Below, one piece after another: positions 1-64,000 of a stretch of DNA of 64,000 bases (the first letter of the stretch is position 1; each line of letters opens with the position of its first letter). The notes below the pieces were generated by a model that saw only the letters and a program-made list of their open reading frames with translations, searched no databases and was not told the DNA's origin. The DNA is from Heterotrichella gracilis (Eukaryota > Sar > Xanthophyceae > Tribonematales > Xanthonemataceae): the NCBI GenBank assembly GCA_032358255.1, contig JAULBX010030264.1, positions 1 to 64,000 of the forward strand, written 5' to 3'. The position numbers and the translations under genes are program-made.

Positions 1-3000
1 CGCCCCGCCGGCCCCCGGCGCGCTGCGCGGCGGCGGCGGCGCCACCTTGCCACCGCGCCCGCCCTTGCCCACCGTCTCCCACCCGTCGTCGGCGCGGAAG
101 CCAGCCTCCCCCCTGAATGCGGGGAAGAGCTCCACCTCCTCTGGGCGCCGCATGGCGGGCCCGCGCATGTCCGGAAGAGAGTTGAGCTTGAGGCCGCCCA
201 GCTGCGGCACCTGCAAAATGCCCAGCTCCGCCTGCGCCTCTGTCCGCACCTCGCTGATCTTCTTGGCCTGTGGCGAGGTGGGGGAGGGTGGGTTCGGTTA
301 CCTTTGAAGGGGAGCAGAGGAATGGCCACGCAGCCTGTTCTTAAAACTGGCGCGTTGGTGGAGGAGGCGCCAGCAAAGAGACAGGCATTGCCACAAATAT
401 CCCGATACGAGTGAGTGTGGGTTCAAGGATGCTGAAGCGCACGGCAGCAGAAAATAAGATGTCAGCAGGTGCACAAACGCCGAGCTGTGGTGTGCTCTAC
501 TGTCAGATAGATGGTTATGAATTCTACCAGTCGACTGCATGTTGCGGAAATTGCCAAAACAGATGCCAGGGGCAACATCTAAAGTATAAATATAGTAAAA
601 GAAACGATAAGGTAAAAATGGGAGTAATGGTCTATCATACTAGTCTAGCTCATTTGGTAACTGGTTCCTTCCCTGTCAAAACGTAGTTCCCTGTCAAAAC
701 GTAGTTCCCTGTCAAAACGTAGTAAGTAATACATCAACCCGCCCTCAACATAAGGGTGGCACTAAGTGATACATAAAATACTGTTTCGACAGGTAGGGAA
801 TGCAGTACTACATGCGCATCCAAATGAGTATGATACCATTACCCCTCCTACTATTGTACTATCTATTTACCACTGACCCATCCCGACGCGCATTCCTCAC
901 AGATTGCACTCTGCAGTTTTGAGGTTTGACCTTAGAGTTTGCCTTGAGATCGAGGGTTTTAGGGTTCCCACGTACCGTCGCCTTCTCGCGGCGCGGCACC
1001 CAATGGTTCTTGCGCAGCTCGATGCAGTCCCGTAGCATGAACTTGATGCGCGACGCCAGCACCTTGCTCTTGGTCAGCTTCTCCATGTACAAGAAGTAGC
1101 CCTCAAGCTTCTCCTTGTTCTTGGGCACGCCAGACTTCTCAAGTGAGGACCCAGCCACGCTGATCAGCTCGCACATGGCCTGCAGGGGGGTGTAGGGTTT
1201 TAATTTGGGGTTTGGGATGGCTGTGGCTGTTTCCTAGTGTGAAATGGACTTCTTTTGAAGAAGCTTCTCCTGGTTTCACCAGTGATGAAACCCAGCCACG
1301 CTCATCAGCTGGTTTGGGGGCGCAGCAATCCTATCCAGCCTCGGCCGCCACTCATTATGGTATATGTGAGACAATATAAAGCTTATATCATCATGAGCCA
1401 CCATAACGTACCATGCTGCTGCTGATCACATGGGACCCGCCACCCACCGCCACCACAGAGATATACAACAACCGGCCACCACAATGGAGATAGTCACCGA
1501 TCCCCAGTAGCTAATGCTCCCACACCCAGCGACCAAACGCCATCCCACCCGCAACCCCACCGCCATCCCACCCAATGCCACGCACCATCCCCCCTGCCCC
1601 ACAGCTCAGCGCCCTCTGGCAAGCGCATCCCCCGCCAGCTCCTCTTTAGGGTTTAGGTTTAGGGTTTATGGCCCCTTACCTCGATGTTGTCCTCTGGCGG
1701 CTCTTGGCGCCCATCCCCCGTCAGCTCCTGCATGACAAACTGGATGATCTTCTCTTGCACCACGCTCTTCTTGTACAGCTCAGCAACCAGCCGGATGTTG
1801 CCCAGGGTGCGCATCTTCACAACGCGCTCCGCGTAGGCCCGCTCGTTCTCCGGGGTATCTTGCAGCTTCTGCAGAGTGCATAGGAGGGGGCAAGTGAGTT
1901 CACCGTTTGCCTTTGTTGGTGTGCATCCCCTTTAGGCGCCGCATGCAGGCAGACTACCAAGCATGCCATAGGTTGGGGGGGAAGGGGTGATGGTGTCGCA
2001 GAGGGCGCATAGTGTATCTGCATATGCAATCAACACAGCACGACCATGGAGCGGGCTTCACGCGAGCATGAGCAGCAATTGTAAAAATTCCATGCAAATC
2101 CCAAGCAGATCCATATCCACATGGCGAACACCGCAGGATGCACCGCACAGAGACGCTTCATGCATTTGTGCAACGGCCATGCGAATCCACATGAAAACAC
2201 CGCCAATGCCGCCAAAGCCCCTCCAGACCCTAAATCCTACACGCTATACGCAGGACGCACCGCTCTTGCCACCGCGGCCCCCTCAAACTCCTCTTGGCAT
2301 GTGTTGAGCAGCACCCTCCTGAAGGTGATGGGCTTCAGCTCGCCCTCAGGTGGGGGGAACTCAGGCAGCTCCTGCAGGGGATGTAGGATTAAGGACATGC
2401 AGGGGATTTAGGGTTTAAGGGTTAGGGCATGCAGGCGCTCACATATCATGTCATGCAAACCCTTGGACATGGGATATAGTCCGTACAATATTATGTAAAC
2501 ATCTCGTCCAACCCAAAAGGAACACTACATAACATTCCGTGTGGCACGAGCCATATGCCATGCATGCACCCACACCCATGCTGATGTGGACAGCCAAACA
2601 CCCATCGCCATGCGGCCGTTCAGAGCATGCAGGCGGGCATGTAGGTAATGTGCGCTTTTGCCCCACGGACCATGTGTGTAAAGGGTGGGTTCCTCTGTCG
2701 CAATGCGCTGAACACACGTGGTGCCATGCACAGCCCCTAATTCCAAAGCACCCATGTGTTTCCTTCCCCTTCTCCTAGAGGAGGGATGACTAACCAGCTG
2801 CCCAGCAGCAGCCAGAATGCGTGCGTACCTTGGATAGCTTGAGGCACAGGTCTGCGTACATCGGGCAGTAGGTGGGCTGCGCCACAGCATTCTCAAACAC
2901 CAGCCTGATTGTGCCTTGCAGGATCTCGTCGCTCTCAATTGCCCCAACTAGTTGGGACTCCAGGCGCTCAAAGTTATCGGGAGTCAGCTTGTTCAGAATA

Positions 3001-4638
3001 CCCTTGATGGTCTTGATAGCCTACAACCAAACACACAAGTGTCATGCACGTTTGTCTCTGTGTGCAGGAGCAGAGGAGGCGGCGACACAAACCATAGGGA
3101 TGTGGTGAGTCTTCTGTGACAGCAGTTACGGCCACAAATCAAAGAAGCTGTGCTACCAGCATCCCATGATGGCAAACCCATCGCCAGCAACTAGCTTTGC
3201 CTTGGCCAGAACCAGCACTAGGCCAGTACCAGCCCCCACTGGTACATGTAAGGGTCAGTAGTTCCTATAGTCAAGTACCCGGTGGCCCTGCCAGCTGCCC
3301 TGCTGCCTGAAGGCCGCGATGCTACACCTGTGTTAGGGTTTAGGGGTTTAGTGCTGCCATACCTTTGCGGTTCCCTCCCCAGTTGTGACAGGCGCCCAGG
3401 CTGTGCGGCCAATATCTGCTGCGCGCTGGATCTTGGGACCCTCCAGCCCCTGCCATGTTGCACAGGCGCTTGTTAATGTGTGTGGGATGGAAGTGGAAAG
3501 TTGTACAACTGGGCCATGCAGAACATAGAAGTATGATCCAGCCAGATGGAAGTCTGATGTCTAAACATGGAATGCCCCTCGAGCAGCGCATGTGCTAGGC
3601 AAGGTGCCGAGCTATGAGCTGCACATCCATGCCACAATGGTCTCGGCTGGAGGTGCACTCCCTTGCAGTGCAGCGCGCTCGACGAGGCGCCAAGTCATGA
3701 GCCGAGCAGCCAAGAACCTCAAAGAGCTCATGCATGCGCGTGCAGCGCATACCTCGGGAGGGGGTGGGCGGTGGTCTGGGTAGCGCTGGTTGCCGCCGCG
3801 TTGGTCCCTCCCCCCCCTGCCACCGCCACCGCCCCTGTCTCCGCCCCGGTCGCCGCCGCCCCGGCCACCGCCACCGCCACCGCCGGGTGGCCCGCGGTTG
3901 TCATAGGGCCCTGGCGGGGGGGGTCCCCTTGCGTTCCTCCAGCTGCCCCCACCCGTGTTGGCCTCAGCAGCAGCCTGTGTGCGCTGCAGGGCCGGGCAAC
4001 CCATGGTGTGTTTGTATCATGGAGATTGTCATGGTGATGGCCATTGGTGTCGCAGCAAAGTTAGATAATGGTGTGCCTGGGAAAATTCTGGTGAAGAAGC
4101 TACAATGGAGCAAAACCTGTTTGCAACGTTGAGTTACCTGTAGGAGAGCACGCTGGTTCTCGCGCTGTGGGTCATCTGGGGCCATGCAGATGTCCAGTTT
4201 TGGGTCCAAGCCATTGGGTGGTGCTTGGCAGTGTAGAGCCTGTGTTGAAGAGCCTTGTATCAGTCACGTTGAATCCGCGCAAACCCATGGGCCCCGGTTC
4301 CGCAACACAGGTTACTGGCCATGGCATTAATCAGTAATAGCGCACGCCACCTACCTGGCTGAACTTCACAAGGAAACCCTTTGTGTATCGCACGATCTCT
4401 CCTGGCTTCTTCTTCTCCTCTACAACAACCTCAGCCTGAAAGGAACGACGCGCACGGCATCAGAGGGCTGTGCACAACCTCTCAGAACCGAAAACAGGAG
4501 GGGGCGTCCAGAACAGGGGCATACCTTGCGGGCTGCCGGTGCCACACCAGCACCTGCAGCAAAGTTGGAGTATGGGTTGGCCTTGCCACCGCCACCGGGG
4601 CGCAGGCTCTTGGGCCTGAGTGAAAGCTCCTCGTCCAT
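1..4638 (-). CDS. EIFISO4G: eukaryotic translation initiation factor eIFiso4G-like (3' end off window)
   Basis: Scaffold of the cap-binding complex that joins eIF4E, eIF4A and the ribosome. Ten exons are visible: 4638-4525, 4435-4355, 4239-4138, 3983-3753, 3449-3363, 3020-2829, 2371-2261, 1868-1680, 1179-976 and 267-<1; all phases agree. The start ATG has a good context (ACCATGG) and gives MDEELSLRPKSLRPGGGG, like the SLRPGGG start of plant eIFiso4G. Exon 2 holds the eIF4E-binding motif Y-x4-L-hydrophobic (YTKGFLV). Exon 4 is a Gly/Arg-rich RGG tract. Exons 5-9 form the MIF4G domain: KGILNKLTPDNFERL, AQPTYCPMYADLCLKLSK, LLNTCQEEFEGA, MRTLGNIRLVAELYKK and RIKFMLRDCIELRKNHWVP are all family hallmarks. 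The last visible exon is the linker after MIF4G; any MA3 domain lies beyond position 1. Seen directly: motifs and splicing. Known: family role. An eIF4G rather than iso form is possible but the short N-terminus argues for iso4G. Confidence 0.9.
669..722. repeat. three perfect 18-bp tandem repeats in an intron
   Basis: The unit ttccctgtcaaaacgtag is present three times head to tail, inside the long intron (975-268) of the eIFiso4G gene. No ORF or splice signal depends on it. Confidence 0.9.
1261..1310 (-). repeat. intronic copy of the start of eIFiso4G exon 9
   Basis: Matches 1108-1170 of exon 9 with small gaps: aagcttctcct at one edge and cccagccacgct-atcagct at the other are shared. It lies about 110 bp upstream (sense) of the exon 9 acceptor at 1180. 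A loose telomere-like stretch (tgtagggttttaatttgggg, from 1191) lies between copy and exon. Confidence 0.65.
1612..1644 (-). repeat. intronic copy of the end of eIFiso4G exon 8
   Basis: This stretch resembles 1690-1731, the last part of exon 8 (shared core catcccccg-cagctcct on the plus strand). Between the copy and the real exon edge at 1680 lies a telomere-like tract (1645-1668). See the findings for the general pattern. Confidence 0.7.
1645..1668. repeat. telomere-like TTTAGGG tract in intron
   Basis: Reads tttagggtttaggttt then agggttta: three to four plant-type telomere units, one degenerate. It sits directly downstream (in the gene's sense) of the exon 8 splice donor of eIFiso4G, between the exon end and its intronic copy. 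Confidence 0.9.
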
Positions 4639-20502: not shown

Positions 20503-23500
20503 TTATCCAGCGAGTGCTATCTTCATCTCTCTGTGCAGGAAGTCAAAGCTCTTTGCCTCCTTGAGCATGGGCGGCACAGGGACCTCCCCGTACAGGTCCT
20601 GCAAGCCAGTGAAAGGGTTAGGGTTTAGGGTTTCTAGCATGGGAAGCCTCCCGGTACATGTCCTGCGAGCAGTGCACCCCAGGGTACACAGCGATAAAAG
20701 CAGGACTCATGGCGCCTAGCTCCATCACACAAGCCAGGCAGCAAGAGGTTGCCCACATGGGACCGCCATGCACCATACTGTTGCAATATAATACGCAATT
20801 GAGCCGCATTCCAGTCGGCATGGAATGGCTGGAAGGGGCGATTAGGACAACATTTGGAAGGCATCCCAAGCCATTCAGCTAGAAGATATGGCCAAATTAT
20901 AACAAATCTACCACCATTCAGGTCGCACCTTGTCATCCATGAGCGTTGATATGTCGTCCAGTGAGAATGGTATGCTGGAGTCGTCATCCAGCAGGAAGGA
21001 GTGGCTGGCAGCAGAGTTGTTGTCAACCATCAGCTGCTTCATGCGGCTCAGCACCTGGGGCGACAAAGCAAGCATATTGAAAACTAAATTCCACCCGCTT
21101 TTTGCAACCTGGTTACAAGTTGTACACATACACCGGGTGGTCACTCATATACAAATAAAAGAAAGGCTCAAAAGTCAAGGGATCCGCTTATGCTGCATTC
21201 TACCTCGTGCCACACCATTTAGGTTTTGGATCCTAGGTTCATTTTCATGCCAGACCATTTAGGGTTTGGGTTTTAGGGTTTACCTCGTGCGACACCGTCT
21301 CCGTGCCGTATCTGTCATCCCAGTACATGGTGCTGATGCGGTACAGCTGCTGCACGCTCAGCACCGGGCACAGGTCGTTGGTGATCTCCTCGAGGCTCTT
21401 GCGGTGCTTCTGGTGGATGACCAGGAATGTGACAGCCTGCGCAGGGGAAGGGTTTAGGGCGCTGAGGTTGGGGTTCCGATGGGTTTTGGGTTTAAGGTTA
21501 TGGTGGAGGACCAGGAAGGTTACGGCCTACACCAGGGGCAGGGTTTAGGGTTCATGACGTAGGGTTTTAGGGTCCAGGGATTGATGAATATAGGGGCAGG
21601 CCGCATCACAGCCCCCGCTGGTGTAGTGGCGAGCAGGGTATCAGCATGCAGTGACAGGCATGACGACTCTACCTGACGGCACCGTGCAGACACCATTTAA
21701 AACGTTTCTTGATATTATAATATACAGGACTTCATGTTTAAAGGGGGTGGGGGGTGGGGGGGGCAGTTTGCCACTCCACCACCGTCACTCAGCTGTTCGC
21801 CCCTCACCTGGCGGATGTACTTGAGCTCCTCCCACGACTCGCCCACCCACTCCTTGCCGGCCCCATGGATCCAGTTCTCCACCTCCGCCAGGCCCGTCTT
21901 GACGTACTCGCCGTTGCTGAAGCTGCAGCACTCGCGGCGCAGCAGCAGCTGGTTGAACAGCTGCACGTTGACGAAGGAGAAGAGCTGCTGGAACAGCTTC
22001 TTGACCAAGAAGGAGGGCACAAAGTTGGCCTTGAGCGTGGCCAGCAGTTGGTCAAACACCGACAGGATGTTGCCCCAGTGGGGGCTCAGCGTGTGCTGCT
22101 GCGAGCCGCCTGCAAGCGGGCCAAAAGGGTTTAGGGTTTATTGCTTAGGATTTAGGATTGAGCGTGTGCTGGTGCGACCTGCCAGGCGGCGAGGTGCAAA
22201 TGAGCGATGGGCAGATGAGCGCACTGCAGGTTCAGCGTGTCAAGAATCGTGCTCGGTTGCCATGCAAGCCCCGTTGGGTAGCAGAGCAACCCCCATTCGC
22301 TGGGCGGTTGGGTAAGCATGACCAGGCGAATACGCACTGGCAGCGCCAGTGTGGCATGTGTGGGCCTCCAGAAGTTTCAACCCAGCCATTGAAACCCTAC
22401 ACCTCAAACCCCAAGCTAATTGATTTTGTAACGTGCACTTACCAGGTTGCTGCGAGGGTGGCGTGGAGGTTGGCCGCCGCGTGCGCGTGCTTGCGGTCCT
22501 TGGCGCGTGTATGCATGCCGCCAGCTGCGGCGTGATCTCCTTCTTCACGTTGTCGCGCAGCATGGGGAAGATCTTCTGCACAAAGGCGTCCAGCTGCTGC
22601 TTGAACAGGAGAGCAGGGTACTTGGCCTCAACCTGGCACATAGGGAGGGGGGGAAATAAATTACATGAAGAATAAGGACACGGTCAGCATCTTGAAACAC
22701 AGCGGCGCTGGCTACTTGGCCTCCCCCTGGCGTATATATGACAATAATAAACATTGATTTATTAGGGAAAAGATGTGCAGCCTGCATGGAGTTTTAGCAG
22801 CCGCATACAGAACTTGGCCTCCACCTGGCGGAAATAATGAAATCGCTATTGGATACTCATCATCCCAGCAGGACTTAGGCTCGCGCAGATCAAGTGATGA
22901 CAGAGACGCTGCCAGGACCTAACTGCTTGGCGCCGCAGCAGCACCTTAAGCATGTGCAATGGCTAGGATGCCTGCAACCAACCACCGCACGCACCTGCCG
23001 GAAACCGCCTGCGCCGCCGCCGTGGATGGATGCCTCCCCCCCTGGCGGTGGCGAGGACATGAGCCCTCCCCGCGAGAAGAAGCTTGTGAAGCTGCCCTGC
23101 TTGCCAAAGAAGCTGCGCCTGCAGGGTGGCGGTTAAGGGTTCAGCGCGGGGACACAATTGCAGGCATGTTCTTCACCAGTCTTGTGCTGTGATGCGTGGC
23201 CAACACACAATCACTGCTCAACCCATCTCGCTGTGTGAGCTCATGGCAGCATGTGGGTGGCAACTGTGAACATTGGGGGTCTTTCAACCCCTACCCTTCA
23301 GCTATCGCTTGGGGCACTGGCTGCACCTGGATGTAGCCCCCAGCCGTGGCAGCCTTGACATTCCTGGAGCATATACGCCCAAACCCATAGACCCTCCCTT
23401 CTGGATGTGCCCTAACTTCAACAACCCCTACCCCACAACCTACCCGCCAGCCGCCGCCTGCGGCGTGGGCCGCAGCCGCTGCGTGTAGTTCCCCCCCGAG

Positions 23501-26500
23501 GCCGGCTTGATGTTCTTCTGCAGCAGGTACAGCAGCGTGACGGTGTTGGACAGCCAGTAGGACAGGCAGTCGTTGTTGTCCTGCTGCTTCTCAAGCTGGC
23601 TGCCCATGGTGTTGATGATCTTGTCAAACAGCGTGGTGCGGTCGGCCTGGAAGGCCTTCCATTGCAAGCAGCTGCGGAACACCACCACGGCAGCCACGGG
23701 CCGGCCTCGGTGGAAGCCAAGGTTGTCTGCGGGAGCAGCCAGGGCAGTCAGTCGGATTGCCAGCTTGCCAATGGTGTGGGTGAGCTGTGCATCTGACCAC
23801 AGCCATGGTGGCATGCACATGACTGAACGACTGTGCGAATCTATCTACTGTGCGTAGCTTTCTACTGTAATACGCAATCAAATGGAATGCAACATTGCAT
23901 TGGGACATGTATCACCAGAACAGCCTAAATTTCCCCTTTACACCAACCAATCTCTTTTTTTATTACTTCAAAACAATTTCCTTTTCTTCTTTAACGAAAC
24001 AATTTCCACAAATAAAGCTGCTGGATGGAGCCGCACCCTTGATCGTGTTGAGCAGCTTCTCCTGGTCCTGCGAGCGCTGCTCCCGCAGGATCTGCTGCTG
24101 GCGCATCTGCAGCTCCTTCTGCTTGCGGTCAGCATCCGTCATGCCGTCCACAGGCGTGGAGGGCTCCCCGCCATTCTCCATCGGCCGCGGCCGGCCCGAG
24201 GGGATGTTGGGCGTGGGCGCGTGGCGCGGCGCGGTCATGGGCGTGGCGGGCGTGCCCGGCGTGGCTGCGTCGTAGGGCGTGCGCATGTGCATGGGCGTGA
24301 CCCCCGTGGGCGACAGCTGCTGGAGCGTGGGCTGCAGCTGGTGCTGCAGGTTGGTGGCCACCTTGCGCATGCTGGCCAGCATGCCTGCGCCAGTGGTAGG
24401 GTCACAGGGGGTCAAAAGCCACATGCCGCAAGCTCCTGGGTGCAGGGGCATTCAACACAACAGCGGATTGCAATCCGCAGCTCAAGTGCATACTCCCCCA
24501 TGCTTCAGCACAACCCTTTGCTACCTCGCCCTTAACCAGCGTGCCTCATCAAGAAGTACACACAGCACAGAACTCTGTTATCTGTATACAACCCCTTGAA
24601 CATATCTGAAGGATAGGCAGCGCGATTTCAATCCAATTCCCGTTTCCCTGCCGTACCTGTGTCGGGCCCGTTGGCCATGGCCATAGCCGCAGTTGCACCC
24701 GCAGCCGGCCCCACCCCTGCCGGCATGAGCCTGCCGCTCTCCAGGTCCTCCTCCATCTTTTTTATCTTCTCAGTGGCGAGCACCACCTCCTCGCGAGCCG
24801 CGTTGCGCTGGTTCACGGCGTTGTTCAGGCGGTTCATCAGGTCCTTCACCTGGATCTGGGCCTTGGTCTGCAGCAGAGGGGGCAGCGGGAGTCAGAAGAG
24901 GTAAGAGAGGGGAGGAGGAGGGGAGGGGAGGTCAGTGTGTATGGTACTAGTGCCATTACAATCAAGGGTTGTCAAGCCAAACAGCAGGCTGTGCCATGTA
25001 TGCCAGTGCAGAACCAGCTGCCATCCACCGCTATTACTTCAACAGTGCATGGCACACCCTCCCCCCTGCTCAGTCTCCTGGCACCAAGAAACACCCATGC
25101 TGCCACGCAGCCTTAACAACCACTGCCCCTTGTGACTTCACCGCCCAGTAGTTACACCCACACCCAGTAATTTCAACCGCACCCACCTTCCTGGGAGCCT
25201 AAACCCTATCACCCACCTCCATCTCGCTCTTTGCCCGCTCGCTGGCCGCCTGCTTGTCCTTTGCGCTCTTCACCTCCACCATCAGGGTGGCGCGCTCAAC
25301 TGCAGCCTTGTCCGACGACAGCTCAAGCGCCGCCTGCAGGAACAAGCAATGATGAAATGGTTGATGATCATAAATAGGTAAGGATACAAACGATGTGAAC
25401 TGGGCATACGCCGGTGCTCGCCCTTTGTATGTAATTCTTTTGTTTGATGAGTACTTATTGTGCATGTGGGAGGGTTTTGACCCGCATTAATAACACAGTA
25501 TGGCTAACCGTAAACAGATATTCATTTGATTGCAATAAATATCTGCAATGAAACAGGTATTTACTCATGCAATGTAATCCACTGTACCTGCAGGCTTTGG
25601 CCTGCACTATTGAGGATTTCTGGCAAACCCTAAAAGACAATTAATTGATTTTCATAATACCACTGTACCTGCAGGCGCTTGACCTCCGCCTGCGCCGCCT
25701 CGCGCGCCGCCCGCTCCTCCTCAAGCTGCGCTGTCACCTCTGAGGTGAGCCGCTCCAGGTCAGCTGCGTGGTCGGTGAGCAGCGCCTGCACCTTGAACTC
25801 AAGCAACTCCCGAGCAGACCGCTCCTCCTGCAGGCATGCAAAAACATGTCACGCACATGACACTGAGAACGGCTCCAAGTGAATCCACGCGTAGAGCCAC
25901 AACCATCACAGCCACCACCCTCAATTCTCCTCCAGAGTGCCACTGCTGTGCCACCCAAGCACTCGAGCGCTCTGCGCCCATGGCTCCAAGCGACATTATG
26001 CGGACAGGTTGGGTACCACCCGTGCGCACCTTGTACTGCTGCTTGAGGTCGTTGCGCTGGTTCTGCACCGTCTCCAGCACAGACTGCAGCTCCTTGCACT
26101 TGATGTCCAGGGCCTGCTTGTCCTGCAGCAGCTTGCCAGCCTCGCGCGCCTCGGTCCGCCGGGCGCGCAGCTCGCGCCGAGCCAGCTTGCTGCGCCACGC
26201 GCACTGCATGCGCACCACCGACCGCCGGTAGTGCACAAAGTGCGACCGCGCCTTTTGGCGCCGCCAGGCGGTCTGGATGACCAGCGCCGCCTTTTCCCGC
26301 CTGGATGCGCGCGCGGCAGGATGTGAGCGAGGGTGAGGGGCCTCATTTTGCTTGCAAGCCATGCAACAGCCATGCCTACATGTTGCCTCACTAATAAAGT
26401 AACTAATGGGTAAATAATAATTCATAGAAGAAGTGGTGACGACCCATGAATATGCAGGCCAAGCATCATTAATGGAAACAACAAAAATGCGCTTATTTAC

Positions 26501-36121: not shown

Positions 36122-36133
36122 TCGGGGCTATGC

Positions 36134-37264: not shown

Positions 37265-40200
37265 CTAGCTTGCCTCCATTCCTGGTTGCACCAAGGGCGC
37301 TTTGCCGCACAAACCCTTGTGGGACTTCCAGTGCTTCACCTGGCACTCGCGGCTGCAGTAGCGGCGCTGGTGGCACCCTGCAGACCATGGTCGGCAACTC
37401 GCTTCTGCTCACAAAGGGTGGCAAATCCAACACCCACAAAGGCAGAAGGCAAGAACCTCTCCACAGCGCTGCCTGGTTGTGCGTCAGGCCTTGCCAAGTT
37501 TCAAATTGCAGAATCAGAGCTTTCAGAGATTGCAACAATTGCAATGTAAGCATTTGCAATGTGCACAATGTCAAGGGTAATAAGATAATATTAGTCCAAT
37601 TATTATCTTATTACCCTTGAAGATGTTCTCCTGTCAAAGGGACGCTGGCCACGCTGGGATTGCTCCTGCTCAAAACTGCGTCAAACTTGATAGAAATACA
37701 CCTTTTCTTGCAATGGGCGGCTACAATGCAAACGGCCCCTAACCTGGCAACATGCACCAAGCTGCCAGGCAATCCAAGCCTAAGGCTCACCCACCGTCAC
37801 CCCAAACCCACGTAGCCCCACCCCTCACCTGAGCACTGCTTGATTTTCTGAGCCTTGGTTAGCCTCAAGAAGTGGTTGTGGTGCCCGCAGTTGTCCCACA
37901 TCTTCAGCTCACTCATGTCCGTGTAAAGCTCATATTGCACGTCAAAAGGAGGCTTATTAGGTATCTGGGCGACGAGGTCAGCATTGATTTTGAACTGCCC
38001 TGAAGGCTGCACCATACGGGCCACAAAGCATGCCTGCATGGGGATGCATGTCAGAGGGCGGGGACTGGAAATTTCCTGTGTTGGGGCGATGCATACCAAT
38101 GGCCCCAAAGGATGACAAGGCAGGTAATGTGGTGCTCTTGGACCCCACCAAAAACACATGCATCTCTAATTGGACCCCAGCCAGAAAGTAAAATTTTGAA
38201 TAGGCTATAGAATGACCGGGTCAGAAAAATGACCAGGCGAGCAGGGATGCGCCTAAACCCTAAACCCTAAATGGGCGGAAGCTCAAAGCAGCCTCGTTTC
38301 CAGTGGCTGCCAGTACCATTCATACTCTTCCCACGCTTCTATACATCTACACAGTGCACACTCCCTCAACTTAACTGGATTGGCCATGCAGAGATCCGCC
38401 AGGCTGCTGAGTGACTTTGCTTCGATGCATCCCAGGACCACAAGCACGGACAGTGACAGCATAAACACTTGCTTGCTGGGGTGCAGTATGTACTTGCGCA
38501 TGCGGGGCACCAGCAGGGGCCGCAGGGAGGCAAACGGCTCGGTCTGCGAAGTGGGGCCAGGTCATGTGTTCTGAATGGAACTGTGCCTTGGCGGAACATT
38601 GTCTCCATGATTGGTGCATACCGCCCCCACCAGTATGCATCATTGAGAGGCAAATGGCTCGCACTGTGACCTGCAGCCAAGTGAGGAGTTCAGGGTTCAG
38701 GGTCAGGGATTGATGAGCTGTATGAGGAGTTCAGTTGTTGAGTTCAGACACCATTAAATTTGCGCGGCAAATGGCTTGGTCTGCGGTATGGAGCCAGGCG
38801 ATGAGGTTTTGTTGAGGTACAAGGCTGGTCTGGAGTGCAATACTGCGTGGTGTGTCCTAAGGACGCCCCTCCGCCACTTGAGCGCTCATCAGATAGGGCT
38901 GTATGGCAGTTGGTATAAAATGCGTTGGGTACCCACGTTGGCCACCTACACCACTAGACTAAGTGAGCATTTGCAGCAATCAGCCACCCAATCCAAAGTT
39001 AGGAGCTTCATGCGAGGAAAGCGCACCTGCCATGTGACCTGTCGACGTGGATCAGACATGGATCCGGATGTCAAAAGAGTCTCCAGTGTCTTGCTAATGG
39101 TGCCCAATGCCGACGTAACAAAGTCGTTTGAAAGCTGTTGGTTGTGGATGTAGTTGGCAATCTCGTCATCCTCCCCCTGCTTGTCAGCAGCCCTTAGTAT
39201 GATGGGCAGGGCACCCGCTTCAAGCATGGCTGCAACAGGAAAGGGACAACCCTAGGTAGATGTGGATGTGGATGCATTTGGCTGGCAAGCACAGGCTGTC
39301 TAGCAGCATATTTTTAGACGAGGTTAAGTTCTGGTCATGAATGACATCCATTGTCATAGGCCGACAACCATCATCTTTAGTTGTCCGAGCGGCACGCAGT
39401 ACGTCATGGGCATACATTGTAGGCGTGTGTATGATAGTAGTGTTGTCCGACCCTAGATGTTCAGCGGCACGCATGTATAACGTTATACAACGTGCAATAT
39501 ATATATTTTGCTGGCACCTAGCAGCAATTTGTGTTGGACAGGAGTGCATGGCGTGTGGCGACAATCTTTGGATGCATCCGTCTGGGGGCACGCATGACAC
39601 TGTGATTGTACATATACTTCGCCACAACCAACCATTTGCACTGAACCAAAGCACCTGGCAGTGCTTCCACAGCTCGCCGTAGCGGAAGGATTACCTTGTG
39701 CGCACTCTGGCAGCATATGAGAGACGGTATGGAGGCCAGTCAGCGCAAGAACAGCATCAGCAGGCGAGAAATCTGCCCTGCCTGTGTCCAGTCGGGTGAG
39801 CGCACGAGCAATGGTGGCCACCCAGCCTTCATTGGCACCTGTGGGGATGGAGGAATGGGATGGCAACCTCAAGGAAGGGATAAAAAAATTGAAGAGAAGG
39901 ACGGGACCGACCATTATTACGCTCTTCCGCAAAATTCCGTACTTCACAGAGTATTGACCTCGGGTCTAATAATTATTTGATAATTGGTACATAAAGTATC
40001 ACGTACAGGGCGTATTGAAACCGGGATTCCTTAAATTTCCATTGAGCTAGATTGCTTGCCTAGTCAAGTGTGGCAGGAGTGCATAAGGCCCCTCCAATTG
40101 CAATTCATCCCCATCTTAAACCCCACCTGCATCTCCACCCACATTCAGACCCGCCATCTCTGCCTCCACCCCTGCCAGTAACCCCTGGTTGTGTTGCAGA

Positions 40201-47997: not shown

Positions 47998-48046
47998 GGG
48001 GACTAGGGTAGGGTTTTAAACCTAGTGCCTAGGGTTATAAACCCTA
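47998..48046. repeat. palindromic telobox-like element, copy 1
   Basis: ggggactagggt, then ttaaacctagtgcctagggt, then aaaccct. Nearly the same arrangement recurs at 48990-49040. Confidence 0.65.
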
Positions 48047-48389: not shown

Positions 48390-48700
48390 GTTATCCAGCA
48401 GCGGGCGCATGAGCTACCCTCAAATCTTAAATCCTAAACTCTGAACAGAGCTACATGCGCATGGGGGATTGGCAGCTGGCGCATGAGCTACATGCGCATC
48501 GGCACCGCTAGTAACACACAGGCAGGGAAGCCAGCATGGGCGGAGGGGGTGGCAGCTGGCACTCGAGCTACATGCGCATCAGCACCGCTAGTCCATACCA
48601 CACAAGCAGGGAGCCAGCAGTGGGCAGATGGGGTGGCAGCTGGGGCATGTGAATGGGCACCACTGGACTGCACTGGAGGAAAGCCAGCAGCGGGCAGAGG
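48390..48700. repeat. imperfect minisatellite, units of about 80 bp
   Basis: The modules ggcagctggc, gagctacatgcgcatc, caccgctagt and gccagcagtgggcag recur in the same order about three times (ggcagctggc or close at 48471, 48551 and 48635). Not coding. Confidence 0.75.
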
Positions 48701-48989: not shown

Positions 48990-49040
48990 GACTAGGGTTT
49001 ATATTAAACCTAGGTGCCTAGGGTTTCCAAACCCTAAAAA
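48990..49040. repeat. palindromic telobox-like element, copy 2
   Basis: ggggactagggttt, then ttaaacctaggtgcctaggg, then aaaccctaaa. The centre is an inverted repeat (aaacctagg / cctagggttt). It sits just upstream of the telobox Myb gene. Confidence 0.65.
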
Positions 49041-49117
49041 TCCGGTACAGTTTTCCTACAATTTGAGCGTGCTGCGGTCAACCAGAGATACAAAGCAAAG
49101 AGCTAGCCACACTTCAG

Positions 49118-51628: not shown

Positions 51629-51711
<83 letters not shown>

Positions 51712-53992: not shown

Positions 53993-56900
53993 TCACATCT
54001 GTGACAGCAGGTTGCTGAGGCTCTCCTCCCCTTCACCCCCCACCGCCACCCCCTCTGGCACCACCGAGCCACCCTCAGCACCTTCCACCATCCCCAGCCC
54101 CCCATCATCCCCCAACAGCTGCTCCAGAAATCCCATGCCAGGGTCCACAGCGGCCTCAGCCTGCACGGTGGCGTCACCCGGCACCGAGGGGCTAATCTCC
54201 GAGGGCAGCTCAAATGACCCCTGGCCCTTGAGGATGTCCTGCAGCGTCAGCACAGGCTGCGGCGGAGGGTCTTGAGGCTTTGCCTGCGCAGAAACAAAAA
54301 TGATAAATATGCATGAATTGAAGGGGCTCCCTACAGAGAACAAACATATACAACATCAATGGCAACTACAGATAAACGGCAATTACAATATGGCTCGTGA
54401 GCCAGACCAGCAATTTTAAGCCTAGAGCAACGTGAATCGAGCAAATAATACCAAATGCAAGCTACAAAGCCTGTTGAACAGGACAAAGCTGTTGAACAGG
54501 CTTTTTGAGTAATTACGAGGATGCACAACGAGGGTTCTTTGCTCTCCTGTCCCACAAGCTCCGTACCATGGCGGGATGCGCAAACTGCTGCTGTGGCGCT
54601 GCCGTCGCTGCCGCCTGCGCGTGGCTGTTCCACTGCTGATGCGCCTGCTGCAGGTTGGCCATGAGGGTCACGTCAAGCTGGCCGGGGCCTGACGCGCCAA
54701 ACATGGGCAGGGAGGCCAGCTGGTTACCCTGGATGCCGCCTAGGTAGGCCTACAGAGGGGGGCAAGGAGTCTTACAGACTGAGGATTAAATAGCAACGTG
54801 TTGCGTTAGTGAGATTAGGGCTGAACCTTCACTCTCAGCATCCTTGGTCAATCAGTCATGAGTGGAATGCAATACACTGGGGTGTGCAGCGGGGCAATGG
54901 CAACAGGTGTTGGCCAGCAGGCGCAGGGCTTGGCAGCAGGTATTACATAAGCCTTTCTCATCAAGTGCCTCATCACCCCCACCATCCTCTCCCCTACCTG
55001 CAGCGAGGGCGACGCCTGCTTCTTCGCATGCCCGCCCCCGGTCCCCACCCCGTTGCCCACATCCCCAGCCACCTGCGTGGGCAGCCCCGAGGCCTGGACC
55101 CCAAGCGGGCGAGGTGTGGGGTACGACCCTGTTCCGGCAACCGCAGCAGTGGCGGGATCGCCGGGCCAGCCCTGCTGCGCGCGCTGGTTGTTCTGCTGGG
55201 CCAGGGCCTGGAGCAGCAGCTTGTTGAGGTCGCTGACTTGGCCTGGGGCCGTGTCGCTGGAGGGCGCATGCGCAGGGGGCGGGTTGGGCGCCATGGCGGG
55301 CATGGCGGGCATGGTGTGCATGGCCTGTGGATGGTGGAAGGGGTGCAGTGCGTGAGGGGGACGTGGGGGGGATGTGGAATGCAGGTGGTGTAAATGTGAC
55401 TGTTGAGTACCCTTGCCATGTGTGGAGATGACGGAGCGGGACATGGCGCCACCCATCTACAGCTGCTTTGGTCGTTCATTATGGACCTAAATATGAACCA
55501 TCTAGCCAGGTACAGAGACCGCGTCAACAGGCCCCCGCCCCACACACCTGCATGGTCATCGCCGCCTGTGCGTTGCGCTGCATCATCATTTGCTGCTGCT
55601 GCTGCTGCTGCTGCAACTGCTGCTGCTGCAATTGCTGCTGCTGCTGCTGTTGGGCCACCTGATGGGCGGCTGCGGGAGGTGCCGCCGGCTGGTGTGGGAG
55701 TGGGTGCTGGTGTGGCTGTGCGGCCTGGCGGGGTGGGGGCCCGGGCCCGGGCCGCGCCCCTGGGTGGCCATGGGGTGGTGGCCGGTGGGCCTTTGGCGGT
55801 CCCGGCTTTGCCGCTGACTTTGACAAGTGCTGCTCGCGCTGCTCCTTTGAGATGTGCTGCAGGCGCTGCACCGAGGTCTGGGGCAGCTTATGGTACTTGG
55901 GGTACAGCATGCCGACCTGCGCAAGGGGTTAGGGTTTCGGGTTCGGGGCGGTAATGCTCCAGCTTGGGATAAACCACCAACTGCAGTAATGCATGTCTGG
56001 CAACGCATCAATCAGGCAACACATTAGGCTCCTGGAGTCCTTGGCTGCATCCACTGAGCCCGTTTCAGTACCCAGTAATAGTACCCCCATTACCTTCAAC
56101 TCCCCATACATGAGTGACCAACACCCGCTCAATCCTCCCCGCTCTCACCCCCACACCCACCTTGAGGCAGCACTCGGGGCACCTGTAGTCCTTGGGCGCC
56201 ACCACCGAGTCGTCCTCGTGGTCAGCGGGTGACCTCAGCCCCACGCACTCGTAGTGGAACCACTCCTCGCAGTAGTCGCAGCACAGCATGGGCCGTGCGT
56301 CGTCGTAGGGCAGCTGGCACAGGCAGTACAGCTTGGCGTTCTCGCGCAGCGCCTCAAGGTCGCGCTCAACGCGCACCTGGGAAAGGTGAACTTTGTCAAG
56401 ACACAAAAAATACTGCAATACATACAGGATTTAATTCCCAGTGGTATCTACAAAACAAAAGGGAAAAGAACCATCATTTTTGATGCACAGACGATGGCCT
56501 GTAACAGAAAATGAGCAGCTTGTTACTCACATATTTTGTACTCCTTCACCCTGGGAACAGGCAATCATAGGCACCGACCTTCCAGCCCCTTCCTACACAC
56601 ACGCATCCCCACCACCTTCTCTGCACTGTTCCACCTACCTCCAGTGAGTCTGCTATGCGCACCAGCTTCTCAGCCTCCCGCAGCAGCTTGGCGGTAGACT
56701 CCGGGGATGTAGCAGACTGGAGCGAGATGGGGGAGGTGGTTGAGCCATTGTGTGGGCAAAACAGGAAACAAGAATTGCACGGTGCCCATTCAAATCTGGA
56801 GATGCAGTTGACAGCAGCGGGAAAAAGATGGAGGGCCATTTTGTGCCCGCATTGCATACGATGCGGCGGTTTGCTCACTTGCACGATGCATGTGAGGGTT

Positions 56901-59900
56901 GCGCTGTGATGATCACATTTATCCCAAGTGCCCACTGCCCAACATGTTGGGCATCCGAGCAACATTGCCCGCTGTGTAAACCCAGCCGGAACTCCTCTGC
57001 ACAACACCCTTATTACAGCCGGAACTCTGCACAACACCCTTATTGCACCATGTGCACCCCTTCCCGCACCTTGATGCTTGCGATGACCTTCCTGCTTCTG
57101 TCCTGCCACGTGCGCGCCTTGGTCAGGCGGTGGTTCAGCGAGGCAGCAGTCTTGTCAGCAGTCATGTCAACGCCAAGCGTCTCGCCCTCCTGCAGAGGGG
57201 AAAGGACAACGATGTACAGATAATTGATTGTTTTTTGCAGCTTTAAATGATGAAAATAAAAGCAAACAGTATAATCAAGCAGCCACTTAAACAGCCACAT
57301 GATATCCCAGAATGAAGGCCACAGACCAGATCACCAACCTGCTCACCAGGCTGTATTGCTGGCATGCATGTGAGCACAACACCAACTACAGGTACGGGGA
57401 CACACTTACCTTGAGCAGCTTGGTCAGACCCTCCACCGTGTGCTTGTTGTTGGCCGCAGCAGAGGCCGCCTTGGCGTGCCAGCGTGCCACTCGCAGCACC
57501 ACCAGCAGCCGCTCCACGCAGGGGGAGCAGTCGATTTCAAGCGACAGGGCGGACTTGAGCATCTGGTGGAGCCGCTGGTGGGTGAGCTCGCGCGCGAGGG
57601 GTGGTGGGGTGTCGGCCGTGGCCGCGGGTGGGGGGGCGAGGCTGGTGGCGGCGATGTGCGCGTCCACTGCGGCGTTGGTGGCCGCCTGGCAGGTGGGGGG
57701 GGGCGGCGGTGGGCGGTGGGGGGATAGTGGGGTGCAAGCACACATTGCGTTCCAAACGCCAGGGAGAAACCCATTTGAGATGTACACAAAAAAAGAAACC
57801 GCAAGAGTCCGCATTCATGTGGCAAGCGCATCCAGCATGCCGCATGCTGCATGCGCCATGTGCCATGTAATTGACAGATAGAAACGCAGCATGCACAAAG
57901 GGCCCCAGCGACGCACCACAAAGGTGTCGAAGTCGTCCAGCACCCTGCCCAGCGTGGCCTCCTCCTCTACCTCGCAGGGCAGGCCCCTTGCCTGCGCCAC
58001 CAGCTCAGCAACAGTGTCACGCTCAGGTCGCCGGGTGCGCCGCGTGCGCTGGAGGGAGGCGTCCAGCGGTTCGGAGGTGCCCTGCAGGGGTGAGGGATGG
58101 AGAGTCAGCCTGAGTTGGCTACATCGACAGATACCGTACATGCTTGACCGCGGACGAATGCATCCACCGGCAGTAGCCACACGCCATGCACTCCTGTCCA
58201 GCACAAGTGTGGGTTGGTACAGCGGTGCACTTTTGGTGAGCAGCAGTAGTAGGGCATGCATCATGCAAAACCAGGCTCCCACCCTTTTCGTTGCCACCCA
58301 CCTTGATGGCCAGACACACGGGGCACACATACTTCTTCACCGCCTTGGCCTGCGTCTGCGTCATGCCTACGCACTTGAGGTGGTACCACTCGCTGCATGC
58401 GTCGCAGTGGATCATGGCGGTGTCCGCGTGGTAGGGCTGCTGGCACACGCAGAACAGGCTGTGCTCGTCATCCGCGTCGCTGCTGCTGCCACCCTCCTCC
58501 TCGTACCTGCCCTCAACCTGGGGGGTGGGTAAGGGAAGAGTTTAGGGTTTTGGTTCAGGGTTTGGTTTAAGGGTTTTAGGTTCCACCCTCCTCATTGTAC
58601 TGCCCTCAACCTAGGGTGGGGGTGGGCATTTGTTGAGAGTTAGGGTCAAAATATTCTTTATACAGCTATGGGCCATGAGTGTACTCCCCGCTGAAGTCAT
58701 GAGCTGCCTTTGACCTGGTTTGCAAGTTTGAGGCGCAAATCTTGTGCCACGCAAGCACAATTTTCACTCCATAGCAAATTACCCCCCATCTCTCCCCCAT
58801 TACACGCACCGCCTGTCGGATGGCTGGCTGGTGCATTGCCTTGTCCAGCGGCGCAGCCAGCGCATCCACGCCCCACTCGTATGTGTGGCCCGAGTTGCGC
58901 TTGACCACTGCCTTGCGGCACCGCTCCTGCCAGTCCTTCAACTGGGTCATCAGCACCTCAACCTCCTCCTGCAAGGGGGAAGGGCTTGAGCTTCAGGGTG
59001 GAGGATTTGAGTGTGAGCGATTGGGGTTTCCCTTACAGAACGTTGAACATAAGCACTATTTGGCTGATCATGTGGAGTGTGCAGTGGGTGGCATGTGAAG
59101 GGCCCAGGGTTTTGGGAGCGTCAGGACCTGCCTCTACCTTCTACTTTTAGCTAGAACAACCGATTGGGGCAGAATTCAAACTATGGCGGCGCCCCCATCA
59201 AAACACGACATGACCTCACCCTCCACCCGCTGTCACCATGCGCCTCCGTCACTGTCTGGTGCCGCCCACTCAGCCCACCCACCCACCTGCATGTCGCTGA
59301 CCAGCGGCATGGCCCTGCCCGCCTCGATGAGCGACTTGAGCGCGGTCGCGGGGGTGCGCTTGGGCCCCGGCTGGAGGCACGCCCGCGCCTTGAGCTCCCA
59401 CCCGTTGAGTGCCTTGAGCGCGTCTGTGAGGCGCTGCAGCCCGGTGAGGCGCAGACCAATGGCCTCGCCCTGCTGGATGTACTGCTGCACCTGCGCGGTG
59501 GTGGGGGTTCGGGATTCGCGGTGCTGGTGGTGGTGGTGGGTTGTGGAAATTGCTGGCAGTGGGGATGCAGCAGGCAAATGGATGGCTATTGGAATGACCA
59601 AGTGACCATACTTCGAAGCATACATATGTATTCCCATTTTTACTGCAATCAACTAAAAATACATATATCTCCAAATCGCCCTACCCTAAACTCCCTCCCA
59701 CTTATTCTCACCTGTGAAATGGTGAGCGTGCGCTGCTCCACCGGCTGGCCCGCCTTGCGGCTGGTGAACACGCCATTGATCACATCCTCAAAGGCAGCAG
59801 CCTCCTCAAGCAGCTCAGTCAGCAGCTCGTGCAGGTGGTGGTCCACAGGGAGGCCCTCGCAGTCGGAAAACAGCTTCTGGGCCTCAGCCAGGGTGGGCCG

Positions 59901-62900: not shown

Positions 62901-64000
62901 GTGGCAATGCAGTACGAGCGGGAATCGTCACCACCACCATTGTCAAGCCACCATGCCGGCAGCAGCACCAGCAGCAACGCAGTTTGATCCACCCCCCTGC
63001 CGTACGAAGTAAGGTGTAGCATGTACTTCCAGCCACAGCCCTAAAGAGTACAAGGAAATTCCAATGCGCTAACTAATACACATTTTGCATAGAAAATACA
63101 CATTCTAATATTGCACCCCCCCCCTCACCTGCTCCACCTCCTCAGTCTTCTGCCGCTTCCTTGAGCTCTCCCGCATGGAGGGCACCACCGCACGAATGGC
63201 CTCAGCCACCTTGCGCACCCCAGCCAGCTTCTCGCGCAGCGCCTTGGCCTCGGGCAGTGTGAGGGCCACCTTGCTGGACTCGTTCACCAGGCTCTCAAGG
63301 GCCTTGAAGTCGACGATGCCCTTCTCGGAGAGCAGCTGCGGGTGGGGGTGGGTGGTGAGGTGATGAGGGTGGTGCAGGGGGGGGTGTTTGAGATACCACG
63401 GTTTGAGATCCACGGGGGGTGACAGCAGCACGTGGTGGGTGGTGGGTGTTGTTCTGGTGGGTGGTGTGGCGCAGAAGTGTAATGCTCTTCCCATTCCACA
63501 CACACCCTCGCCATGTGCAGCAGCGTGAAGTGGTGGTGATCGTGCTGCATGCAGGCCTCGCCCCTCCAAGCAAATCCCTACACCACCCCTGCGCCTTGCT
63601 CCTTCGCACTGCTTCCAAACCCTAAACCCAAGACCCAAGATCCACCACCCACCTGCTGCGCCCTGCCCCTCCACGCCAGCCCCGCCTCGTGCAGCAGCCG
63701 CAGCTTAGCCAGGCCCTGCGCGTTGGCGGGTGGCGGCTGCCAGCTCAGCACCGGCGTGACCTCCTCAATGGTGGGCTTGGACTTGAGCAGCACCTGGACC
63801 TGTGAAAGGGGGGGGGGGGTTGGAGGGTGAGAGGGGCGGTAATGGTTGCGTGAGCGTGTGTGGGCAGGTGGCGGGGTGTGGTGCACGCTGATGAAGTTTT
63901 GACCACCCCTAAGTACACATCTATGTATTATCCCACGGCTCCCCCATGTCATGCACCTCCACCTGCTTCACCATCTCCTTTTGAGCTGCGCCACAGCTCA
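53993..64000 (-). CDS. KDM5/JARID1-like chromatin protein, C-terminal part (5' end off window)
   Basis: Twenty-one exons, phases consistent: >64000-63963, 63799-63653, 63335-63129, 62815-62594, 62204-62079, 61777-61623, 61369-61156, 60908-60693, 60401-59712, 59490-59287, 58968-58810, 58517-58302, 58081-57917, 57685-57410, 57189-57070, 56716-56639, 56376-56161, 55916-55548, 55324-54998, 54749-54567, 54283-53993; about 1540 residues, ending in TGA. The first 900 residues are a long run of helices with regular W and L positions (LERVESWQAACKEALLLKPE), as in the PLU-1 region of KDM5 histone H3K4 demethylases. Two PHD fingers follow: FCVCQQPYHADTAMIHCDAC with EWYHLKCVGM (exon 58517) and YCLCQLPYDDARPMLCCDYC with EWFHYECVGL (exon 56376). 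The C-terminus is Gln-rich with a poly-Q/poly-M run, then acidic. JmjN, ARID and JmjC would lie beyond 64000, so catalytic activity cannot be judged. A PHD protein of another class is the alternative. Confidence 0.75.
55572..55660 (-). repeat. poly-glutamine coding repeat
   Basis: Runs of CAG and CAA codons (tgctgctgct on the plus strand) in the KDM5-like gene encode about 22 Gln interrupted by two Leu, followed by three Met. Likely length-variable. Confidence 0.9.
58136..58206 (-). repeat. interspersed repeat, copy 5
   Basis: Minus strand: TGCTGGACAGGAGTGCATGG then CGTGTGGCTACTGCC, GGTGGATGCATTCGT and TCAAGCATGTAC. Shares its left half with copy 3 and its right half with copy 4; lies in an intron of the KDM5-like gene. 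Confidence 0.8.
58580..58622 (-). repeat. intronic copy of the start of a KDM5-like exon
   Basis: Resembles 58488-58530 (ccaccctcctc and tgccctcaacct shared). In sense: CACCCTAG then GTTGAGGGCAG; real: CCCCCCAG then GTTGAGGGCAGG. The acceptors are 93 bp apart, with a degenerate telomere-like tract (58540-58579) between them. The intervening frame meets a stop. Confidence 0.8.
62283..62325. repeat. imperfect AT-rich inverted repeat
   Basis: aatgataatagg followed by tcctatcattatcttatt. It shares the word attatcttatt with the perfect hairpin at 37571-37620, so the two may be relics of one small palindromic element. Confidence 0.5.
62508..62523. repeat. 16-base C homopolymer
   Basis: Unbroken C run in an intron of the KDM5-like gene; its length may be uncertain in the assembly. 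Confidence 0.9.

What the first reader, a model, noticed from the sequence alone, without database searches (positions are those of the whole stretch)
1108..63678. Exon-edge copies inside introns, separated from the real edge by telomere-like DNA
In at least nine introns of four unrelated genes (eIFiso4G, myosin XI, MYND gene, KDM5-like) a 20-60 bp copy of an exon edge lies 60-240 bp inside the adjoining intron. Six to seven of them have a TTTAGGG/CCCTAAA-like tract between exon and copy: 1645-1668, about 1191-1215, 20615-20633, 21449-21498, 22126-22157, 25626-25636, 58540-58579. Seven copy acceptor sides (mostly keeping the AG) and two or three copy donor sides. The structure exon edge / telomere-like insert / exon-edge copy is what insertion of telomeric DNA at a staggered break with long overhangs, then fill-in, would leave. 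I know of interstitial telomere repeats and of break-linked duplications, but not of this as a recurrent feature of intron ends. Copies seen directly; mechanism inferred.
Basis: partly seen in the sequence, partly recalled or inferred. Interest (0 to 1): 0.88.

Follow-up and report, generated by a model that had tools for sequence, protein, structure and literature searches.

The report
Telomere scraps beside duplicated exon edges
In this green alga, short stretches of chromosome-end (telomere) DNA sit just inside introns next to a second copy of the exon's edge, apparently scars of broken DNA mended with telomere sequence, and the pattern recurs well beyond the stretch first read.

Summary
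In 314 kb (window plus 250 kb of the same 68.5 Mb genome) a self-trained gene finder gave 350 usable introns. 64 of 700 exon edges (55 introns) have a copy in the adjoining intron; controls give 0 of 700 (reverse complement), 4 of 3484 (random introns) and 5 of 512 (exon interiors). 31 of the 64 have a telomere-like tract between edge and copy; 5.6 are expected. Conversely, 39 of 108 intronic tracts have flanks that copy each other (4 of 536 for swapped flanks). In the cleanest cases 25-80 bp arms enclose little but the tract. Tracts are about 3-4.5 times denser within 60 bp of splice sites than mid-intron, and near acceptors 26 of 28 read CCCTAAA in sense.

Best explanation: staggered breaks with long overhangs, filled in, with telomeric repeats added before joining; exon-internal events are purged, junction-spanning ones leave edge copies. 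Single events of this kind are known in mammals, rarely and not tied to introns. The scale, long arms and splice-site concentration look new. Enzymes are inferred; a 'tract first' origin remains open.

The parts
1136..1310 (-). Acceptor-side edge of an eIFiso4G exon (arm 1136-1169) and its intronic copy (1275-1310); the 105 bp insert holds a degenerate tract (about 1191-1215)
1611..1729 (-). Donor-side edge (arm 1700-1729), intronic copy 1611-1643, tract 1645-1668 beside the copy
20574..20674 (-). Acceptor-side edge of last predicted myosin exon with splice site (arm 20574-20611), 25 bp insert that is almost all telomeric tract (20614-20633), copy 20637-20674 keeping AG
21205..21296 (-). Tandem-like 40 bp repeat at a myosin donor edge with telomere-like sequence (21258-21282) inside the unit
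21408..21537 (-). Acceptor-side edge (21408-21447) and copy (21498-21537), telomere-like sequence after both arms (21449-21459, 21481-21494, 21540-21552): a tandem-like case
22088..22200 (-). Acceptor-side edge (22088-22125), 35 bp insert made of tract (about 22126-22157), copy 22161-22200
22605..22829 (-). Acceptor-side edge with two intronic copies (22699-22736, 22812-22829), no clear tract: serial duplication
25579..25676 (-). Donor-side edge with GT (25660-25676), exact 17 bp copy 25579-25595, weak tract 25626-25636
38508..38803 (-). MYND gene acceptor-side edge with two diverged copies (38628-38691, 38766-38803); only degenerate CCCTGAA-like sequence between
56014..56209 (-). KDM5-like gene donor-side edge (56165-56209) and copy (56014-56058), no tract
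58489..58646 (-). Acceptor-side edge (58489-58554) and copy (58583-58646), 28 bp telomere-like insert; tract 58540-58580 overall

Best explanation
These are scars of a recurrent break-repair reaction. Two nicks on opposite strands, or another staggered break, leave complementary overhangs of about 20-80 nt. Both overhangs are filled in, which copies the overhang sequence on each side. Before or during this step telomeric repeats are added to an end, most simply by telomerase on a 3' end, with a CST/Pol-alpha-like complex filling in the other strand as it does at telomeres; end joining then closes the gap. The result is arm - telomere tract - arm. Without the telomeric step the same reaction leaves plain partial tandem duplications, which are also present. 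Events inside exons are removed by selection. Events that span an exon-intron junction are nearly neutral, because the copy next to the exon keeps its splice site, and they leave the other copy as an exon-edge relic inside the intron. Near acceptors the CCCTAAA sense orientation survives, because it fits the pyrimidine-rich stretch (and offers CTAAA, branch-site-like as I recall the pattern), whereas G-rich sequence there would spoil splicing. Shown: the arm/tract/arm anatomy, its excess over controls, the concentration at intron ends and the orientation bias. Inferred: staggered breaks, fill-in, telomerase, CST and the selection story.
For: Edge copies far above the controls, none inverted at score >=16, reaching within 5 bp of the junction in 55 of 64. 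Tract (>=12 telomeric bases) between edge and copy in 31 of 64 vs 5.6 expected; in gaps of junction pairs 25 of 60 vs 5.4 expected at matched positions in introns outside that list. Conversely 39 of 108 intronic tracts have matching flanks vs 4 of 536 swapped and 38 of 474 position-matched. Inserts of 11-120 bp: 20 of 65 align to the telomere repeat at z>=4 vs 4.3% of 325 random intron stretches and 7 of 65 with the reversed motif. Clean cases with 0-5 bp margins: window 20574, 22088, 58489; L023:2622; L029:1370; L031:3691. Median intron length over edge hits 381 bp vs 291 bp in introns without. Whole genome: 5629 TTTAGGGTTTAGGG vs 5 for the reversed string; donor-adjacent 410 and 260 vs 98-124 expected; acceptor-adjacent 659 C-sense vs 420-433 expected. 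Telomerase RNA-binding domain matches at C626. In mouse cells 43-nt 3' overhangs give small tandem duplications through CST and Pol alpha-primase (PMC8355091, abstract and passages). In mammals telomeric repeats were inserted at breaks, sometimes with flank duplication (PMC2246262, PMC7215372, passages).
Against: No orthologous empty site was available, so direction of change is inferred. 33 of 64 edge copies have fewer than 12 telomeric bases between, and 36 of 132 pairs are tandem-like without insert. In 20 of 132 pairs the left arm itself holds telomeric sequence, as 'tract first' predicts; the 26-of-29 result leaves that class out by construction. Some clean inserts depend on gapped extension of the arms, which lowers their identity (L031:3691, 95% over 38 bp ungapped, 76% over the long arms). 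Polarity of the tract was not seen (15 of 29). Purity of the tract does not clearly fall with arm divergence (rho 0.23, p 0.33, n 20). At z>=3 the reversed-motif control is not small (14 of 65 against 25 of 65). Near acceptors the G-sense tract pattern is at chance genome-wide (450 vs 420-433). Tracts also cluster near splice sites in introns without detected copies (17 and 16 of 56 within 50 bp of donor and acceptor vs 8.7 expected each), which the repair model explains only if older copies have decayed.
Confidence: 0.55

Rival explanations
1. Tract first: telomere-like tracts already lie at intron ends (perhaps as splicing elements) and, by stalling replication or forming G-quadruplexes, provoke local slippage or template-switch duplications of the neighbouring exon edge.
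For: Tracts are 2.8, 4.5 and 3.5 times denser at intron ends than mid-intron in three length classes and are in excess at the ends of copy-free introns (17 and 16 of 56, 8.7 expected each). Telomeric sequence lies inside the left arm in 20 of 132 pairs. Examples: window 21408, L032:8859, and donor+tract units 112 bp apart in C23.
Against: Where the tract is in the insert, a second tract on the outer side is found in only 3 of 29 pairs (this set leaves out pairs whose tract fell inside the arms). Several inserts are nothing but the tract between long arms.
Confidence: 0.25
2. Capture instead of synthesis: a loose piece of telomeric DNA is ligated into a staggered break; telomerase is not involved.
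For: Tract sits between the arms without polarity. Both routes were proposed for mammals (PMC2246262, passages).
Against: Tracts are short (median 18 bp, maximum 52 bp), which fits a few telomerase steps more naturally than captured fragments; other captured sources were not searched for. Not excluded.
Confidence: 0.15
3. Functional splicing elements: selection keeps CCCTAAA at acceptors as branch site plus polypyrimidine tract, and the copies are alternative splice sites.
For: Within 50 bp of acceptors 26 C-sense vs 2 G-sense tracts; C-sense peak 10-50 bp before the acceptor; copies keep AG in 19 of 24 and GT in 23 of 29 arms, against a 67% dinucleotide match rate.
Against: Does not explain exon-sequence copies, nor donor-side tracts in both orientations (17 G, 17 C). 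AG/GT retention is only moderately above the arm average. Likely a filter on survival rather than the origin.
Confidence: 0.15
4. Intron birth: the copies are the target-site duplications of newly inserted introns (introner or Daphnia type).
For: Direct repeats at intron/exon borders are the known footprint (PMC4202315 passages; PMC11782384 abstract). A faint end-to-end signal exists: 4 and 7 of 350 at score >=12 vs 0.8 and 1.0 expected; 1 and 2 at >=14 vs 0.2 and 0.4.
Against: [quoted passage not shown] 0 of 64 copies lie within 10 bp of the far splice site (5th percentile 100 bp).
Confidence: 0.03
5. Chance or artefact (composition, gene-finder bias, assembly error).
For: Gene models are predicted, not transcript-based; merged genes occur.
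Against: Controls are near zero; local duplications are seen without gene models (119 vs 7, 1, 3 in 200 kb); edge and copy differ by about 4-27% (5th to 95th percentile), unlike assembly duplicates; the myosin model gives an unbroken motor domain, 679 of 679 profile positions.
Confidence: 0.01

Closest known systems
Short interstitial telomeric sequences inserted at double-strand breaks in mammals (PMC2246262; PMC7215372; passages seen)
   Same: Short telomeric tract in unique DNA; flank duplication at staggered breaks is one recorded outcome.
   Different: There duplication accompanies 6 of 130 rodent, 4 of 25 primate and 3 of 66 horse loci (2 more horse loci as part of complex changes), and the intronic share in human (31%) fits random insertion; here 39 of 108 intronic tracts have matching flanks, arms are tens of bp, and tracts cluster at splice sites. 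The two ways of counting differ: theirs compare empty orthologues, mine does not.
CST/Pol alpha-primase small tandem duplications at 3'-overhang breaks (PMC8355091; abstract and passages seen)
   Same: Direct duplications at breaks with overhangs of tens of nt (43 bp in one design there), closed by end joining; uses telomere fill-in machinery.
   Different: No telomeric repeats between the copies are mentioned in the passages seen; enzymes not tested here.
Tandem duplications from paired nicks and patch-mediated breaks in plants (Schiml et al. 2016, seen only in a reference list; Vaughn and Bennetzen 2014, recalled)
   Same: Local partially tandem duplications of tens of bp in plant genomes.
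   Different: Not linked to telomeric filler or to exon edges, as far as recalled.
Direct repeats in new Daphnia introns (PMC4202315; passages seen)
   Same: Repeats read as staggered-break footprints that lengthen introns, some copying an exon end.
   Different: The exon-end repeats there are 4-12 bp and lie at the opposite intron end; no word beginning with telomer occurs in that text.
Plant telo boxes (PMC3022908; passages seen)
   Same: Short telomere motifs dispersed in plant genomes; telomerase acting on free 3' ends is proposed as source.
   Different: Over-represented in 5'UTRs and slightly under expectation in introns there; here denser in introns, at both ends. UTRs were not modelled here.

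Membership tests
Short ITS inserted during break repair | Short telomeric tract flanked by non-telomeric sequence | tested here: met
   119 tracts in 314 kb, median 18 bp, maximum 52 bp, 108 in introns
Short ITS inserted during break repair | Empty orthologous locus proving one-step insertion | not testable with these tools
   No related genome is held for this one
Short ITS inserted during break repair | Break-site bases in register with the repeat (telomerase signature) | tested here: inconclusive
   17 cases listed without a formal count; one clear five-base case by eye (L029:1370)
CST/Pol alpha small tandem duplication | Direct local duplication of overhang-like length | tested here: met
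   Ungapped arms 16-71 bp; inverted edge copies 0 of 700
CST/Pol alpha small tandem duplication | Dependence on CST, Pol alpha-primase, Ku | not testable with these tools
   Needs mutants; the CST genes were not searched for
[quoted passage not shown]
   0 of 64 within 10 bp of the far splice site
Transposon insertion | Target-site duplication of fixed length | tested here: not met
   Arm lengths vary widely
Transposon insertion | Shared element between the duplications | not tested
   Apart from the tract no shared insert was seen by eye; no genome-wide search of inserts was made
Plant telo box | Enrichment in 5'UTR/promoter rather than introns | tested here: not met
   0.59 tracts per kb in introns vs 0.17 in the unassigned (intergenic/UTR) class and 0.05 in exons

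The most novel reading that the evidence does not exclude
In this algal lineage telomere-type end processing (telomerase plus fill-in) is a standing, genome-wide way of mending staggered breaks in transcribed genes. It continually rebuilds intron ends: each event lengthens an intron, mostly by about 40-240 bp, leaves a spare splice site and, at acceptors, supplies a ready-made branch-site/pyrimidine tract (CCCTAAACCC), so telomeric DNA has become a recurring raw material of splice sites.
Probability: 0.3. Interest if true: 0.88.

Novelty: new variant of a known kind. Interest (0 to 1): 0.72.

Why it matters
It gives a large natural archive, by extrapolation of order ten thousand copies in this genome (64 in 314 kb, not a random sample), of local duplications, about half of them with telomeric repeats in the join. 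That makes testable whether telomerase and its fill-in partners act at internal breaks in nature, why exon-intron borders collect such scars, and how introns lengthen and acquire new splice signals. In the mammalian studies seen, duplication-type insertions number a handful and insertion looks random in location.

Tried and rejected
Simple tandem duplication as the whole story: not enough for the pairs with a tract-only insert, accepted for part of the rest. Intron gain: rejected for the bulk. Telomerase polarity test: no signal, reported as against. In-register listing: too few usable cases. Age trend of tract purity: weak, not significant. First gene-finder settings gave many tiny exons (1571 introns) and were discarded for a version with stronger intron penalties (432 introns); counts on introns use. 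The first gap test (6 of 23 vs 1.4 in the window, 19 of 114 vs 9.2 in C2) lacked intron-matched controls and was replaced. In one search the mean telomere fractions came out undefined (an empty gap), so its means and permutation value are not used; only its counts are. Species: only 'trebouxiophyte-like green alga' (four of the best named relatives 50-53% identical in one WD40 protein: two Coccomyxa, Apatococcus, Trebouxia). Nine paper searches listed no report of intronic telomeric repeats with splice-site duplication; listings were capped and the library is open-access only. Passages of PMC12636532 and PMC8226300 gave background only. On re-checking, I lowered the best explanation from 0.60 to 0.55 and raised 'tract first' from 0.20 to 0.25, because 20 of 132 pairs hold telomeric sequence inside an arm.
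Full report
WHAT WAS CHECKED. The window is contig C772, positions 1-64000, of an unnamed 68.5 Mb genome in 903 contigs. Among the best named relatives of one window protein are two Coccomyxa species, Apatococcus and Trebouxia at 50-53% identity, so the host is a trebouxiophyte-like green alga. The 14-mer TTTAGGGTTTAGGG occurs 2845 + 2784 times; the same string read backwards occurs 2 + 3 times. I fetched C2:1-200000 and C3:1-50000. A gene finder trained on these 314 kb gave 35 genes and 432 introns, median 314 bp, with clean splice consensus and no internal stops.

THE COPIES ARE REAL AND EDGE-SPECIFIC. Without any gene model, direct repeats of score >=16 at 40-599 bp spacing number 25 in the window against 1, 1 and 2 at far spacings, and 119 in C2 against 7, 1 and 3. 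With gene models, 28 of 350 acceptor-side and 36 of 350 donor-side exon edges (50 bp) have a copy in the adjoining intron. The controls are 0 of 350 and 0 of 350 (reverse complement), 1 of 1742 and 3 of 1742 (length-matched introns), 2 of 255 and 3 of 257 (exon interior) and 2 of 349 (next intron) (82 of 432 introns dropped for short flanking exons or length over 1200 bp). The 64 copies lie in 55 introns, nine of them with copies at both ends; the match reaches within 5 bp of the junction in 55 of 64; the median distance of copy to its splice site is 72 bp. Coverage by duplicated arms peaks over the last 40 bp or so of exon plus about 10 bp of intron and falls off beyond.

THE TELOMERE LINK. 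Between edge and copy, 31 of 64 have at least 12 telomeric bases, against 5.6 expected from the same stretch of copy-free introns. In the separate list of 60 junction-touching pairs it is 25 against 5.4: donors 11 of 33 vs 3.1, acceptors 14 of 27 vs 2.2. In the other direction, 39 of 108 intronic tracts have flanks within 130 bp that match each other with telomeric bases masked, against 4 of 536 swapped flanks and 38 of 474 position-matched tract-free places; by place it is 16 of 34 near donors, 14 of 30 near acceptors and 9 of 44 elsewhere. Gapped realignment (155 of 228 pairs kept; exon-exon pairs and duplicates dropped) leaves 132 involving introns. Residual inserts are <=5 bp in 36, 6-20 in 11, 21-60 in 37, 61-150 in 31 and more in 17. 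Telomeric inserts (>=12 bases) are 0 of 36, 1 of 11, 12 of 37, then 7 of 14 (60-100 bp), 7 of 27 (100-200) and 3 of 7 (longer). Telomeric sequence inside the left arm is seen in 9, 3, 6, 2, 0 and 0 of these same classes, 20 of 132 in all. In the clearest cases the insert is the tract and little else: window 20574-20674 (25 bp insert), 22088-22200 (35), 58489-58646 (28), L023:2622-2700 (27 bp arms 93% alike, 25 bp insert), L029:1370-1511 (49 bp arms, 86%, 44 bp), L031:3691-3877 (gapped arms 75-82 bp, 76%, 30 bp insert; 95% over its 38 bp ungapped core). By a second measure 20 of 65 inserts of 11-120 bp align to the repeat at z>=4, against 4.3% of 325 random intron stretches; the reversed motif gives 7 of 65 (at z>=3: 25, 4.9% and 14).

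WHERE THE TRACTS LIE. Intronic tracts are denser within 60 bp of a splice site than mid-intron: 0.84 vs 0.30, 2.40 vs 0.53 and 1.29 vs 0.37 per kb for introns of 150-300, 300-450 and 450-1200 bp. Exons hold 5 of 119 tracts. Within 50 bp of acceptors 26 are CCCTAAA and 2 TTTAGGG on the sense strand; near donors 17 and 17. Introns without detected copies also show an excess (17 and 16 of 56, 8.7 expected each). Over the whole genome, the 14-mer lies 3-30 bp after AGGTGNG 410 times (G-sense) and 260 times (C-sense) against 98-124 expected; 5-30 bp before GCAGG it lies 659 times C-sense and 450 times G-sense against 420-433 expected, so only the C-sense is in excess at acceptor-like sites (overlapping repeats are counted more than once; expectations rest on word frequencies in my 314 kb).

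MECHANISM. Tandem duplication of a unit that includes the tract predicts a second tract outside the arms; 3 of 29 telomeric-insert pairs show one, but this set leaves out pairs whose tract fell inside the arms (the 20 of 132 above), so that route exists too. New-intron formation predicts the copy at the far splice site; 0 of 64. For the tract-only inserts what remains is a break with complementary overhangs of tens of nucleotides, filled in on both ends, with telomeric repeats in the join. Published work supplies each half: 43-nt 3' overhangs give tandem duplications through CST and Pol alpha-primase (PMC8355091, abstract and passages), and telomeric repeats were inserted at breaks in mammals, with flank duplication in 6 of 130, 4 of 25 and 3 of 66 loci (PMC2246262, PMC7215372, passages). 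A telomerase RNA-binding domain is matched here by two adjoining pieces at C626. I infer telomerase on a 3' end followed by fill-in; capture of telomeric fragments is not excluded, and the simple polarity test gave no support (15 of 29).

WHY EXON EDGES. Partly survival: exon-internal events destroy the gene, junction-spanning ones keep one intact splice site, and exon constraint preserves one arm, so that pair stays recognisable longer than an intron-intron pair. That alone does not explain the roughly three- to fourfold excess of tracts at intron ends, because tracts are detected without arms. Either breaks are commoner in or next to exons, or intron ends are sheltered from deletion, or the tract is kept because it serves the acceptor. 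The orientation bias at acceptors, absent at donors, suggests that splicing acts at least as a filter. CTAAA in the tract fits the loose plant branch-site pattern as I recall it; this is not a test.

LIMITS. Predicted, not transcript-supported, introns; a sample that is not random (window and two contig starts); one genome; no allele comparison; no splicing data. The extrapolation to about ten thousand copies is arithmetic from 64 in 314 kb.

NOVELTY. The single event type is known. Its abundance, the long arms, the coupling of duplication and tract in over a third of intronic tracts, and the concentration at splice sites were not reported in what the nine paper searches listed (calls given under Tried and rejected). 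Hence new variant of a known kind.

Noticed in passing
L021:1813-2091 (C2:121813-122091): Ladder of about four acceptor-plus-exon-edge copies in one intron with telomere-like sequence in the gaps, as if the same junction had been hit repeatedly.
   Followed up: partly
L009:4678-4836 (C2): Three head-to-tail 53 bp copies of an exon end with its donor site, outer two 96% alike, no insert: a pure recent tandem case.
   Followed up: partly
G000:C23:72995-73249: Donor-like AGGTGCG plus telomere tract repeated three times at 112 bp spacing; similar pairs at C59:45585/45726, C13:318009/318106, C32:110440/110543.
   Followed up: no
window 669-723: Short head-to-tail repeat TTCCCTGTCAAAACGTAG near the end of the eIFiso4G model.
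   Followed up: no
window 48390-48610: Cluster of GAGCTACATGCGCAT-containing repeats in a region mostly without a gene model, with telomere-like sequence beside the first.
   Followed up: no
L029:1370-1511: The duplicated arm ends in AGGGT, which continues in register into the telomeric insert, as telomerase priming would leave; a single case seen by eye.
   Followed up: partly
window 694-7811: The gene finder merges a PurM-type AIR synthase gene with eIFiso4G; they are probably two neighbouring genes.
   Followed up: no
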